From Vitis vinifera (lineage: Eukaryota > Streptophyta > Magnoliopsida > Vitales > Vitaceae): a DNA stretch of 64,000 nucleotides. Made by a program: the position numbers and the translations under genes. Below are positions 51,968-60,059 of the stretch, piece by piece. The DNA lies in contig NC_081821.1 of assembly GCF_030704535.1 (NCBI RefSeq), positions 8,571,001 through 8,635,000 of the forward strand. Direction: 5' to 3'. The notes under the pieces are model-generated. The model was not told the DNA's origin. It saw nothing but the letters and a program-made list of their open reading frames with translations, and made no database searches. Numbering within the stretch: position 1 is the first letter of the stretch; each line of letters begins with the position of its first letter.

Positions 51968-52415
51968 TAGGGATGGCAACGGGGCGGGTTTTTTCGGGTA
52001 CCCGCCCCGCCCCGCCTCTAATGGGATGGGGTTGAAATTTAATAAACGGGTTTTTAACGGGTATGATATTTTTTTTTAAACCCGGGGCGGGTTCGGGTAT
52101 TGCCCCATCCCGCCCCGCCCCGTTTACATATAAAATTAATTTTAAAATTTAATTTAATTTAAAATTTAAAATTAATTTTATTTTACTATTTTTAATATAT
52201 AGATAATAATAAAAAAAATAATAAAATAAGTTATAAAAAATATAATAATTTTATTATTTATAAATATATTTATTTTAATGTAATTAAAAATTAAAAAAAA
52301 AAAAAAAAAAAAGGAGGCTAAACGGGGCGGGGCGGGGATGAGAATTATTTTTGATAAACGGGGCGGGGTTGGGATGGGGGCGACCTGTCCCGAACCCGCC
52401 CCGTTGCCATTCCTA
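51968..52415. mobile_element. hAT-type MITE with GC-rich ends
   Basis: A 448-bp element beginning TAGGGATGGCAACGGGGCGG and ending CCCCGTTGCCATTCCTA, with the perfect 8-bp duplication ATCAGGAG at 51960-51967 and 52416-52423. The ends are runs of GGGGCGGG and its complement, while the core is nearly pure A/T with a poly-A run (52296-52313). The 8-bp duplication and TA(G)GG..CCTA ends indicate hAT. Confidence 0.9.
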
Positions 52416-54129: not shown

Positions 54130-56624
54130 ATGTCCGCCTCCAAAGCCAAGCTCCTCTGCAACTTCGGCGGCGAGTTCACTCGCCAACTGGGCAAACTCAG
54201 CTATATGGGAGGCAAGACTCGGCTGGTCCTCGTCGACCGCTCAGTCAGTTTCGACGAACTTCGATCGAAACTGAGTCAACTCACTTGCGCTTGTCCATTC
54301 TCCATCGAGATCAAGTATCAGCTTCCCGACGAGAGCTTGGAGTCTCGCCTCGTCTCCGTCGAGTGCGAAGACGACGTCGTTGCGATGATGAGCGAGTTCG
54401 AGGCTTCGCAGAGGATTCAGGTTTACATCTTCGCTTCGGACCACAGGTCATACTGAATTGCATTGTGCTTGGGGCTTTTTGTTTGTTTTGGTTTGGTTGC
54501 TGAGAAAATAAGGAGAAAAAAATTTGAATCGTTAGGGTTGGTTTGTTTTCTGAGAAAATGTGGGAGAAGCAAAGAACCTGGAGATTTGAACATTAGGGTG
54601 TTTAAATTACATAAGAATCCATCCAATTAAGCACAGGGAAAGAGGCTGGGAACCTTAGGGTTAGTTTGCTTGATGAAAACAAGTGGGGAAAGAGAAGAAA
54701 TTGGAAGTTTGAATATTTAGAAATGGCCAAAAGATAAAACGGAATACTTCCTTGATAAAGTCTAATGTAACAGGTTATGATATTGAATTATTAATAGTTT
54801 GCTTGGTTGTTGAAATTTTTTTGAAAAAGAAAGTAATTCTAAAATTTTGAATATTAATTCAGTGTTTGCGATTCAAGCGAACAAAATACTCCACTCCAGT
54901 GAGCCAAATAGAAATATGTTGTTTTCCCTTCTTTCATAGCTGGATGCTGTGAAACAGGGGGAATTCAAATGACCCATCCACTCGTATCAAATTAATCTTA
55001 TTAGGTTATCACTATGCACTCTCTCAGGTTTTATTCCGAGAAATTAGGGAAATTCATCCTGATGATTGGGTACTCCGGCAGTTGCTTGCCTCTCTTGAGT
55101 AGAATCCATTAACATGACACTACAGCTACAAACAGATTTTCGGCCTTTCATATGAGTTGTAAAGGAACTTGAATATCATTTTCTTTTGAGTTTGTTTCTC
55201 CCTTAATCTTCACCATTGCTATGTTAATTTGTGCTAGCATTATTGTGTATTGTCTGGGCTTTGCTCATCCATTTGATTCTCAATATGCACCTTTGCTGGT
55301 GAAGATTGATTATTCCTTTGAGTTTTTTCACCACCTTTGGCCTTAGAGTAGTGGGCATAACCTGTGGTAAAGTCAAATTCAGGGTGATTAGCCTCTAAGA
55401 AAGCAACCTCCTTCCTCTCATGTCCGATATGACATTGAATTAAAAAAATAAAAATAAAATTAATGACATATACAGATATTTGATAACCGTATTTTGTTGA
55501 AGCAATGAAATATTCAATTGTAAACAATTTGAGTCAAAGTCTATGAAAAATAGGAAATGGATCATACTTCTAAAACAACCTCAAACAAAACTAGTAACTA
55601 ATATTTGGAATTAAAAAAAAAAATTGCGCAATTATTCAGTTTGCTTAGTTTTTTGCTTTATATGGTGGGTCCTTGAGGTGTAGCTTAGTGGTAGCGCACT
55701 TTGGCAATGAACCAAAGGTATCAAGTTTGAACCTTTCAGGAATTTAAGTAGTATAGAGTAGAGTGACGGGTCCATACCACTTAGGTTTTTGGAGTTCAAT
55801 GGGTGATGTATTCTTCAATGAGAGGTGCCGTTTTGAGCTACCATGTGTCCTTCGTCATAAAGAAGAGAAAAAAGGTTTGGAATGCTTATTCTAGATCATT
55901 TGGAGGGAAAGAAATAGAAAAGGTTTTGATAATATTGAAAAAGTTGACCAAGCAATTAAACAATCTTTTATGTACATTTTGTTGGAATCAGTCAGAGTGT
56001 CTTTAGGTGATTATTCCTTGTCCATGATGCACTTTGTGGAGTGGTTAGAGTCTAAGTAAGGCTTGGTTATTGTTTTTTGTGTACCCCTCATCTTGTTTTT
56101 TGGTCATTTGGTCTCCTTGTATACGTTGTATATACCTTTGTGTGCATTTTTTTTAGGTATTTTTAATATAATCAGTATTTTTACCTATCAAAAAGAAAAA
56201 AAATGCCACCCAAGTTTTTTTTTTCTTTTTTCAACAGTTGGGATTAGTGCCTCTCTGTTGGGGTGGATTCTATCAGGAGGGGGAGAGAGAGAGAGAGAAG
56301 AAGGAGAAGAGAAAGAAAAAGGAAAATGCAAGGCTTTGAATTTCTCAGCAACCAACTAGTGGTTTAGACTGCATTTGGTTTTGAATGAGAGAGAGAAGAA
56401 AAGAAAAAAAACCTTTATATGGAGCTACATGAACAGCAGAAAATGCAAGGCTTTGAATTTCTCAGCAACCAACTAGAGGTTTAGACTGCATTTGGTTTTA
56501 AATGAAAAACAAAATTGAAGTTTGAAGCTTAAGATTTTCAGCATTTAAAGCTAGAGAAAATGTAAACCTTCACTCAACTTAGCACGATGTATCTATTTGG
56601 CTTACTCTGTTCCTCTCACTCTCC

Positions 56625-56692
<68 letters not shown>

Positions 56693-58322
56693 AGAGAGGA
56701 AAAACAGAACAACTTAAAACAATATTAGTACTTCTATTTTCTATCTTCTCAGTTTTCTCAGCAATCAAGTAGAGTTGTATTTTATTTTATTTTTTTCTGC
56801 TTTTATCAATTCTCATTTTATGGGAATATTGATGTGGTTCTGGTTCAAATATACTGTTTTGTAGGGAGAATGCTAGTCCAGTTGTTGCCCAACCAGTATT
56901 TAGTGGTCCAGCCTCAACTCATGGGTACAGTGATCTTGAATATATTAGTATGCTGATTGTTAAACAAATAGTGATGTTGATTTTCTGATAAATGTTTCTC
57001 TTCCAATTTTTTCTGGGTTATCAATTCTTGAAGAGACAATGCAACACCTATTTATCCCCAGGAGCTAAATGATTGTGAAAATGACCTATTTATGTTGCAT
57101 AGGTATGTGATGAAAATAAATTTCTGTGTTTTTGCTTTCAATTTCATTTAATTTTTAATTCTTTGTCTGCCTTCTGAAACAAAATGGTAATCCATCTATC
57201 ATTTTTGTCGGTCATGGATACCTTCACCAATTGCATTCCAGTGTCAAAATGGTCTATAATTTTCATAGTATTACCAGATTTGATTGCAGATCATGTACAA
57301 TTAGGAATTTCCATCTTCATCAAGCTTAGAATGCCATGTAACAATATGGAAGCAGTTATCATGATTTCACAGGAAATTGAAATGATTGCACACCTTTTCT
57401 ATACCGTAATGAGGGCTGTCACAGTTAACAATTCTTTAAATTGCAATGATATTAGAGGAACTGAGACCTCTGGGTTCTTCTTGCACTGTCATGCAGATAT
57501 GTTGCTGACAAATTTTCATTGTAATGCAGAGTTGGTGAAGGTATTTCCCAGGCTTCTGTAGATAGCCACACCAGTCCAGCATTATCAGAATTGGTTAATG
57601 GAAGAGAAAGTGATACCTTAACTGTTGGCCAGGAATTCCCTGATGCACGCTGCTTTCGTGATGCATTAGTAGCTTCTGCCATTGCCTCGAAGTTTGAACT
57701 AACGTTTATCAGATCAGACCGGTCTCGAGTAACTGCTCGATGTGCTGCAGATGATTGTCAATGGCGAATACATGCATCTAAGCTCCCAGATGGTGAAACT
57801 TTCCAAATTAAGACATTGAAGGGGAAGCATTCTTGTGTATGGCCAGAGCGTTCTAGTCATCGCCAAGCAAACATGAAATGGATCTTAAGTTGTATCATGG
57901 ACCGTGTTCGAGAAAACATTAATTACAAACCCAAGGAAATTATGAGAGATATTGAACAAGAATACGGTGTCATTATTCCTTATTTAAAGGCTCATCGTGC
58001 TAAAGAACGGGCTCTAGAATCTATATTTGGGATGCCAATTAAGGATATAGTTCTTAATCAAGCTGAAGTTCATAATTTGGAGAATGACCTACATACTATT
58101 CTGGATCAGAGAAAAAAGAAGCCTCTAAAAGGGAGTTCGGTTCATTGCAATCTGTGCAGAAAGGCAGGACATAATCGTAGGAGTTGCTTAAAGTTGAGTC
58201 ACAATGAAAGCCAGGCTTCCAGTCTCAAAGAAAAAAACTTCCATTGCATGCTTTGCAAACAAAGTGGACATAACAGGAGGACATGCCAATGCAAGGTTAG
58301 TTCTTGGCTGACCTACTATTAA
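54130..58322 (+). CDS. PB1-MuDR zinc-finger protein without DDE domain (MUSTANG-B-like derivative)
   Basis: Four exons join in phase: 54130-54446, 56865-56924, 57034-57102 and 57530 onward. Read to the in-frame stop at 58322, the product is 412 residues. A good donor (AAG|GTTAGT at 58295) and an acceptor at 58417 allow an alternative end of about 411. Residues ~5-105 form a PB1-like domain (KLLCNFGGEFTRQLGKLSYM), as in MUSTANG-B proteins domesticated from Mutator transposases. Residues ~180-310 are the MuDR DNA-binding region with a C-x4-C-x23-H-x-C zinc finger (Cys220, Cys225, His249, Cys251) and the AHRAKERALESIFG helix that normally precedes the transposase core. The DDE core and SWIM finger are absent: the chain runs straight to two CCHC knuckles (C355/C358/H363/C368 and C388/C391/H396/C401). 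DNA binding without catalysis is the inferred activity. Confidence 0.8.
55670..56200 (+). mobile_element. tRNA-headed SINE-like insertion in PB1 gene intron 1
   Basis: A tRNA-like head has an A box (GTAGCTTAGTGG, 55680-55691) and a B box (AGTTTGAACC, 55724-55733). Far downstream a LINE-type tail (TTTTTACCTATCAAAAAG, near 56195) resembles the 3' ends of the LINEs in this window. The two parts may be one SINE with a LINE-derived tail or two adjacent insertions. Duplications not found. Confidence 0.45.
56322..56505. repeat. Direct repeat, ~67 bp, spaced 117 bp
   Basis: A unit starting GAAAATGCAAGGCTTTGAAT occurs at 56322 and again at 56439, with two differences by eye. The spacer contains GA-rich sequence. 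Located in intron 1 of the PB1/MuDR gene. Confidence 0.85.
56635..56688. repeat. (CT)~27 microsatellite
   Basis: A pure CT run ending in TTTGCAG. It forms a long polypyrimidine tract 180 bases upstream of the real exon 2 acceptor of the PB1/MuDR gene. Confidence 0.95.
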
Positions 58323-59461
58323 CTCTCTCTTTCTCTCTCAAGACATTATTTTAGATCCCCTTCTCTTCCTCAGACCATTTTTCTTTGTTCTAAAAAGTGG
58401 TTTTCTGTTCTGTAGCAGGTGGAACAAGTTTGGATAAAATAGTGTTTAGCTGTCTAGATATTTACTCTTTTTATGTAAATTTTTGTTGTTTGAAAGGCAT
58501 GTTTACTTGCTTGTTTTCCTAATCATTTTAGTTTTTTTTTAATATATTCATTTTAATCATGTATTTACCAGTACAACTTGCAGCCTTTATTTTCTTTTGC
58601 TGCAATACAGTTGGAAGAACTTTGGATTTTTTGTTTGTTGACAGATGCATTAACAATACAGTAAATGACAAGGAGGCCTTTGGATGCCCAATGAGAATGA
58701 AATAATTAGGATGCATATTTCATGGTATTTTATATTGAGTGATTTTGTTTTTCAGGCAGAGGTATCATTTACATCTATTCTTTTATTTTGTATGTTGTTT
58801 GCCATTCCATCCAAGATGATGGATTTGTGCCTTCAAATGCCATAGAAAACAAATAGATGCATTCCATCATGGTGGCACATTCAAATATTGCTGCTATAAC
58901 TCAATCCCAATCTTTAGCAATTTCTAAACCTGTGGTGGATTGACTCCTTTCCTTACTAAGTCTATTGGTATAATTTATGCATGAATAATTTCTTAATGTC
59001 GGTGTAGATCATCTTGATCTGTGCTTGAGGGCTCATTCCAGCAGTCAGCTTTTGTATGGTTTGCCTACTACTTGTTTGCAATTGCTCAAACCTGCGATTT
59101 CCTATGGACACTAATCCCCTCTGCCTTTGTGTGCATGATATCAACATTTGTGTCTGACTGCCTGTTATTGTGTTTTCCATTTCCATAGCTGTTTTGATTG
59201 GATATCCTTCATTTGTATGATGTAAAAGAAAAACTATTGCAAAGCAAAATGAAGAATGCTCCTGTGTATTACTAATTTACTACTGAACACAAATCAACAA
59301 GCCATCCCTTTAAGGACATATCTATAAGTTCCATCTGACAAGGACCTCTCCACTGGTTACATATATCTTTCTTTATGGGCCATGAAGGAAGCCCTTTTCC
59401 ATAACCCAATACAACCTAGTTGGAACATATCATCCTCAAAAGTGAAATCATTGACACTGTA
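58323..59461. other. 3' region of the PB1/MuDR gene and spacer
   Basis: T-rich sequence with possible small terminal exon at 58418-58441 (V-E-Q-V-W-I-K-stop) and likely 3' UTR. Nothing else recognised. Confidence 0.35.
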
Positions 59462-59692: not shown

Positions 59693-60059
59693 TAAGTTCT
59701 ATTACCTCATTCTATTCCTAATTGACTTGAAGTTCATTTGGGCCAAAATAGAACATATTGTCCTAAGATTGAAAAGTTTATTCTTTTAAGTCTGCCTACT
59801 TTGAGGCTTCTTTTCCAAATCACTCCATTTGGGACAAACCACTGTCTAACTAAATGGTGCGTATGACCTTGCAACAAATAAAACATAATACAGTGCATGA
59901 AACCTTCCAACAAGAAAAACATTCAAGGTCCAACACCCACCTTGATCATTTTGAACATTGACACCAAAAAATCAAGGACTTTGAAACTTTTCAACCCATA
60001 TGGATCTCATGGGAGTGTAACATGAAGCATGATTAGGACATTTAAGGCTAGGGTGTTGT

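What the first reader, a model, noticed from the sequence alone, without database searches (positions are those of the whole stretch)
54130..58322. Mutator-derived host protein that kept its DNA-binding parts and PB1 domain but lost the transposase core
The last long exon (57530-58295) is one uninterrupted frame that passes directly from the pre-catalytic helix AHRAKERALESIFG to two CCHC knuckles, so the DDE core and SWIM finger are missing by deletion, not hidden in an intron. The frame is intact over four exons with regular splice sites, and the zinc ligands of all three fingers are kept, which suggests selection. A PB1 domain could dimerise it with other PB1 proteins such as MUSTANG-B. It may act as a DNA-binding regulator or as a natural antagonist of related transposases.
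Basis: partly seen in the sequence, partly recalled or inferred. Interest (0 to 1): 0.75.

Follow-up and report, generated by a model that had tools for sequence, protein, structure and literature searches.

The report
Slimmed-down MUSTANG gene without transposase core
A single-copy plant gene, probably from grapevine, descends from a jumping-gene enzyme: it keeps a partner-binding domain, a DNA-binding domain and two zinc knuckles but has lost the DNA-cutting part, so it may act as a regulator that competes with its full-length cousins.

Summary
Five exons (54130-58442, +) give an intact 411-aa frame with a PB1 domain, a MuDR DNA-binding domain and two CCHC knuckles; no MULE (DDE) or SWIM domain was found in the frames scanned. 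The window's own genome could be searched (495.6 Mb, 21 contigs; grapevine-like, inferred). It holds seven full-length relatives, matching the published 4 MUGA + 3 MUGB MUSTANG genes of grapevine. In all seven, 412-420 aa separate the pre-catalytic helix from the C-terminal knuckle; here 38 aa do, within one exon. The core was therefore lost by internal deletion.

The DNA-binding part groups with MUGA (99/99), although only the MUGB genes carry PB1. Its PB1 looks like the kinase-type PB1 of ordinary plant genes rather than MUGB's; separate acquisition or an ancestral PB1 lost in MUGA are both open. The locus is single copy and constrained on average, but its branch is about 2.4 times longer than its nearest relative's.

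Best functional reading: a DNA-binding competitor or adaptor, as proposed for the DDE/SWIM-less FRF proteins of the FAR1 family. Expression, splicing, orthologues and binding are untested. A new variant of a known kind.

The parts
54130..54446 (+). exon 1: start codon and PB1 domain (PB1 match 54190-54432); ends in phase 2 (AG|G, Arg)
54447..56864 (+). intron 1 (2.4 kb), no transposase domain in the three + frames
56865..56924 (+). exon 2 (20 aa), unsupported beyond splice signals and phase
57034..57102 (+). exon 3 (23 aa), unsupported beyond splice signals and phase
57530..58295 (+). exon 4: DNA-binding domain, pre-catalytic helices, linker, two knuckles
57612..57809 (+). MuDR-type DNA-binding domain (PF03108)
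57810..58031 (+). pre-catalytic region shared with MUG proteins, ending ...AKERALESIFG
58032..58139 (+). linker that stands where MUG proteins have the DDE core and SWIM finger; holds a basic patch (RKKKPLK)
58146..58187 (+). CCHC knuckle 1 (CNLCRKAGHNRRSC)
58245..58286 (+). CCHC knuckle 2 (CMLCKQSGHNRRTC)
58419..58442 (+). exon 5: VEQVWIK and stop; alternative acceptor gives start 58416

Best explanation
This is a host gene descended from a Mutator-like transposase of the MUSTANG (MUG) group. An internal deletion removed about 375 residues, the whole MULE/DDE core and the SWIM finger, while the DNA-binding domain, the pre-catalytic helices and the C-terminal knuckle (now doubled) stayed in frame behind a PB1 exon. 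Shown: architecture, intact frame, nearness to MUGA, deletion inside one exon, single copy. Inferred: the protein enters the nucleus, binds MUG-type DNA sites through the MuDR domain, pairs through PB1, and modulates transcription by occupying sites of full-length MUG proteins or by bringing a PB1 partner to them, as proposed for the truncated FRF proteins of the FAR1 family.
For: Intact five-exon frame with two significant domains; no MULE or SWIM in the frames scanned. Of 150 scored PF03108 matches in the genome (578 candidates) it ranks 8th, right behind seven loci with open frames of 599-825 aa; the seven align end to end with each other, and MULE and SWIM domains were confirmed by Pfam in the one scanned, C3:9346. 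Tree of the DNA-binding and pre-catalytic region: with MUGA 99/99 in both versions. C-terminal knuckle aligns with that of MUG (VHCNLCRKAGHNRRSC / VHCSRCNQTGHYKTTC). Only one copy: the next match to exon 4 is 50% identical and to the PB1 exon 49%. Own branch length at codon positions 1+2 against 3: 0.278 to 1.045, ratio 0.27; the seven MUG rows give 0.02-0.53. dN 0.43-0.54 against the four MUGA genes with dS 1.8 or more, or saturated. Published precedent for the mechanism: FRF1-FRF4 lack MULE and SWIM, FRF1 binds the STM promoter and competition is proposed (passages of PMC6000157; PMC13306707).
Against: No expression, splice-junction, orthologue or binding data. Its branch is long (0.58 against 0.24 for C3:9346), which fits relaxed constraint. 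dS is saturated, and part of the branch may predate the deletion, so constraint after the loss is not shown. A neutral simulation on 141 codons gives P(no stop) 0.08-0.14 at 60-80 substitutions and about 0.02-0.04 at 100-160, so the open frame in that region alone is only moderate evidence. Held together with MUGB, p-AU is 0.050, a borderline rejection. Models without an alignment were too poor to test folds (mean pLDDT 43.0 and 49.7).
Confidence: 0.5

Rival explanations
1. A truncated copy on its way to becoming a pseudogene, still open by chance.
For: Long branch; weak first donor; no functional data. Truncated FAR1 genes arise often: 5,559 FAR1-domain-only genes are reported in the passages seen of PMC8599713.
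Against: No stop over 404 codons of exons 1-4 at 50% identity to the nearest paralogue; zinc ligands kept; codon-position ratio 0.27 on its own branch. In the same genome three dead MUGA fragments carry one or two stops at 94-97% identity to their source.
Confidence: 0.2
2. Two units misjoined: exon 1 is a separate small PB1 gene and exons 2-5 a separate Mutator remnant.
For: Intron 1 is 2.4 kb with a weak donor. Unspliced, exon 1 ends at a stop after 108 residues (one search lists the open frame to 54456), a possible PB1-only product. The PB1 is host-like, unlike MUGB.
Against: The best candidate PB1-to-main-exon intron of 3 of 3 MUGB genes is also phase 2 and splits an Arg codon as here (chosen among several computed options); frame and phase fit through all five exons.
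Confidence: 0.15
3. A repressor aimed at mobile Mutator elements rather than at MUG host genes.
For: The genome holds many PF03108 loci beyond MUG (150 scored of 578 candidates), and DDE-less derivatives can act as dominant negatives (general knowledge).
Against: The four mobile-type copies compared are about 31% identical over the DNA-binding region against 43-50% for the MUGA genes; no binding data.
Confidence: 0.08

Closest known systems
MUSTANG-A (MUGA) genes, nearest C3:9346231-9346653 (599-aa frame)
   Same: DNA-binding and pre-catalytic region 50% identical; tree support 99/99; C-terminal knuckle
   Different: MUGA keeps MULE and SWIM and has no PB1 exon (none found for 4 of 4); here the core is gone, the knuckle is doubled, PB1 is present
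MUSTANG-B (MUGB) genes (C14:433398, C5:2901154, C11:5956385)
   Same: PB1 5' exon followed by a phase-2 intron, then the DNA-binding exon
   Different: PB1 only 26-32% identical; DNA-binding part outside MUGB; MUGB keeps the MULE and SWIM region
FRF1-FRF4 (FRS-RELATED FACTORs) of the FAR1/FHY3 family
   Same: Mutator-derived DNA-binding protein without MULE and SWIM; proposed competitor of full-length relatives
   Different: FRF proteins have the FAR1-type domain; no PB1 or knuckles are mentioned in the passages seen; different domestication line
Kinase and Kinase-derived plant PB1 proteins
   Same: QLP before the acidic motif; up to 49% identity in PB1
   Different: no Mutator-derived DNA-binding domain is reported for them in the passages seen (PMC7051960)

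Membership tests
[quoted passage not shown]
   1.9e-22; 8th of 150 scored loci
MUSTANG (MUG) | core MULE domain PF10551 | tested here: not met
MUSTANG (MUG) | SWIM finger PF04434 | tested here: not met
MUSTANG (MUG) | phylogenetic place with MUG and apart from mobile elements | tested here: met
   8 MUG-like rows against 2 mobile-type rows 100/100, with MUGA 99/99; only two mobile-type rows in that tree
MUGB subfamily | PB1 domain on a short 5' exon | tested here: met
MUGB subfamily | DNA-binding region in the MUGB clade | tested here: not met
   (p-AU 0.050, borderline)
FRF-type truncated regulators | DNA-binding domain kept, MULE and SWIM absent | tested here: met
   (works-like criterion only)
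FRF-type truncated regulators | FAR1-type DNA-binding domain | tested here: not met
   one search lists PF03108 and no FAR1 family up to E 10
domesticated transposase gene | single copy, no TIR or TSD | tested here: inconclusive
   single copy met. Of the 25 longest inverted pairs shown of 40 in 50-63 kb, one flanks the gene: 37 nt, 73% complementary, AT-rich. TSDs not searched
domesticated transposase gene | purifying selection across orthologues | not testable with these tools
   no other plant genome held; paralogue proxies
domesticated transposase gene | transcription | not testable with these tools
   no RNA data

The most novel reading that the evidence does not exclude
A third kind of MUSTANG gene: a MUGA-type DNA-binding domain joined to a kinase-type PB1 domain acquired separately from MUGB's, with the transposase core deleted. 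It would be a natural dominant-negative or scaffold that links PB1 signalling proteins to MUG target sites.
Probability: 0.25. Interest if true: 0.65.

Novelty: new variant of a known kind. Interest (0 to 1): 0.42.

Why it matters
MUG genes matter for plant growth and fertility, and the authors of PMC3435246 left open whether MUGA and MUGB come from one domestication and when PB1 was added (passages). A gene with a MUGA-type DNA-binding part and a PB1 exon bears on both questions. It would also extend to MUSTANG the route known from FAR1 to FRF: loss of the catalytic core leaving a small DNA-binding modulator.

Tried and rejected
Structure prediction of exon 4 and exon 1 without an alignment: unusable (mean pLDDT 43.0 and 49.7), so no fold search was run. 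PDB sequence search: one chain at E 0.52, not meaningful. Relatives in viral and prokaryote contigs: none confirmed, as expected for a plant gene. YN00 dN/dS failed with a math error, and the codon-model runs printed no omega value. PB1 tree: does not decide origin. Host PB1 plus this PB1 against MUGB plus mobile-type copies has 95/96, but this PB1 with MUGB is not rejected (p-AU 0.104; 0.348 in the 16-row tree), nor is it standing outside the hosts (p-AU 0.361). That tree used 12 host loci plus 3 MUGB; one search lists 34 PB1 matches, most of the others left out. The 12 host loci were not scanned for other domains. Knuckle pair: not traceable to one source; the next best match to the C-terminus has 34 bits against 196 for itself. 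Search for a DDE-less PB1-bearing MUG protein in print: listings plus passages of the papers named; none was seen, but only open-licence PMC papers were searched.

Full report
What is there. The five-exon model reads through without a stop to a 411-aa protein. Pfam finds PB1 at residues 21-101 (2.1e-11) and the MuDR DNA-binding domain at 177-242 (1.9e-22); the knuckle family stays below its cut-off, so the two knuckles rest on their C-x2-C-x4-H-x4-C spacing. No MULE or SWIM match appears in three + frames of 54-62 kb or in the two - frames scanned of 52-63 kb.

Where it lies. The window's own genome was searchable: 495,616,077 bases in 21 contigs, the window being C17:8571001-8635000. PF03108 gives 150 scored matches of 578 candidates; this locus is 8th, after seven loci with open frames of 599-825 aa. 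Three of these seven have a PB1 exon upstream and four have none, as reported for grapevine: 3 MUGB and 4 MUGA (passages of PMC3435246). That the seven are these genes is inferred from the count and architecture; no named MUG sequence was compared.

How the core was lost. In the alignment the exon-4 protein follows the MUG proteins from the start of the DNA-binding domain to '...AKERALESIFG' and then jumps to a short linker with a basic patch and to the C-terminal knuckle, which is doubled. Between these points 7 of 7 MUG proteins have 412-420 residues and this one has 38. The whole stretch is one exon, so the loss is a deletion, not hidden splicing. Pfam on the nearest paralogue, C3:9346, finds MULE and SWIM there. 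By eye, that paralogue has Gly where the other six have Asp in the first catalytic motif (motif assignment recalled), so catalysis may have been dispensable in this branch before the deletion.

Which branch. On the 141-column DNA-binding and pre-catalytic region the gene groups with MUGA at 99/99, both with the broken MUGA fragments included (15 rows) and without them (10 rows). Held with MUGB, the likelihood falls by 11.1 and 8.5 (p-AU 0.050 both times), a borderline rejection. Whether it is sister to C3:9346 (p-AU 0.406) or to the four MUGA genes together (65/62) is open.

Where PB1 comes from. The PB1 exon matches 12 ordinary plant loci at 39-49% identity and the three MUGB exons at 26-32% (16 matches of 48 candidates, one of them itself). 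[quoted passage not shown] 10 of the 12 ordinary loci have it, the three MUGB exons have FLP. The tree puts it with the ordinary loci at 95/96 against MUGB and two mobile-type copies, but alternatives are not rejected. Against separate capture, the best candidate intron after PB1 in 3 of 3 MUGB genes is phase 2 and splits an Arg codon as here, loop lengths look more like MUGB's, and mobile-type copies such as L022 carry a PB1-like 5' exon with a phase-2 donor (PB1 score 13.6 bits, below the cut-off). Either PB1 is old in this transposase line and MUGA lost it, or this gene gained its own.

Selection. Against the four MUGA genes dN is 0.43-0.54 and dS at least 1.8 or saturated. On its own branch the rate at codon positions 1+2 to position 3 is 0.278 to 1.045, ratio 0.27; the seven MUG genes give 0.02-0.53. 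So the branch was constrained on average; it is also long (0.58 against 0.24). A neutral simulation leaves a 2-14% chance of no stop in the 141 codons, depending on how much change is ascribed to this lineage. None of this isolates the time after the deletion.

Function. The most economical reading is a nuclear DNA-binding protein that can pair through PB1 and occupies MUG-type sites without the rest of the MUG protein. The FAR1 family offers the precedent: FRF1-FRF4 lack MULE and SWIM, FRF1 binds the STM promoter, and competition with full-length relatives is proposed (passages of PMC6000157, and PMC13306707); MULE-derived FAR1 genes lose these domains recurrently (passages of PMC8599713). 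For this gene each functional step is inference.

Verdict. I saw no report of a MUG-type gene without MULE and SWIM in the listings and passages. New variant of a known kind.

Noticed in passing
L016, L017, L019 (G000 C14:2455924, C19:23048265, C1:18830814): Three repeats, 97-98% alike over 1.1-1.9 kb, hold a broken 5' part of the MUGA gene C7:224882 (94-97% identical) from which a GT..AG intron and a further 96-bp GT..AG stretch are missing, as if captured from spliced RNA.
   Followed up: partly
L020, L021, L022, L023: Mobile-type MuDR copies carry a PB1-like 5' exon before the DNA-binding exon (for L022 PF00564 13.6 bits, below the cut-off); in L022 the donor is phase 2. MUGB's PB1 may therefore predate domestication.
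   Followed up: partly
window 54130-54456: Unspliced, exon 1 encodes a 108-aa PB1-only product, a possible small interfering isoform.
   Followed up: no
L024 (C3:9346, nearest paralogue): Has Gly where the other six MUG proteins have Asp in the first catalytic motif (by eye).
   Followed up: no
G000 C1:11258182-11258430 (L047): A 149-aa open frame with four knuckles of the same GHNRRTC type, three of them spaced about 30-40 aa.
   Followed up: no
window 52083-52122 and 52364-52403: GC-rich inverted repeat (40 nt, 70% complementary) in AT-rich DNA, perhaps a small non-autonomous element.
   Followed up: no
window 59820-60020: Weak multicopper oxidase-like stretch (PF07731, E 0.01, below the cut-off) with stops, in one + frame.
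   Followed up: no
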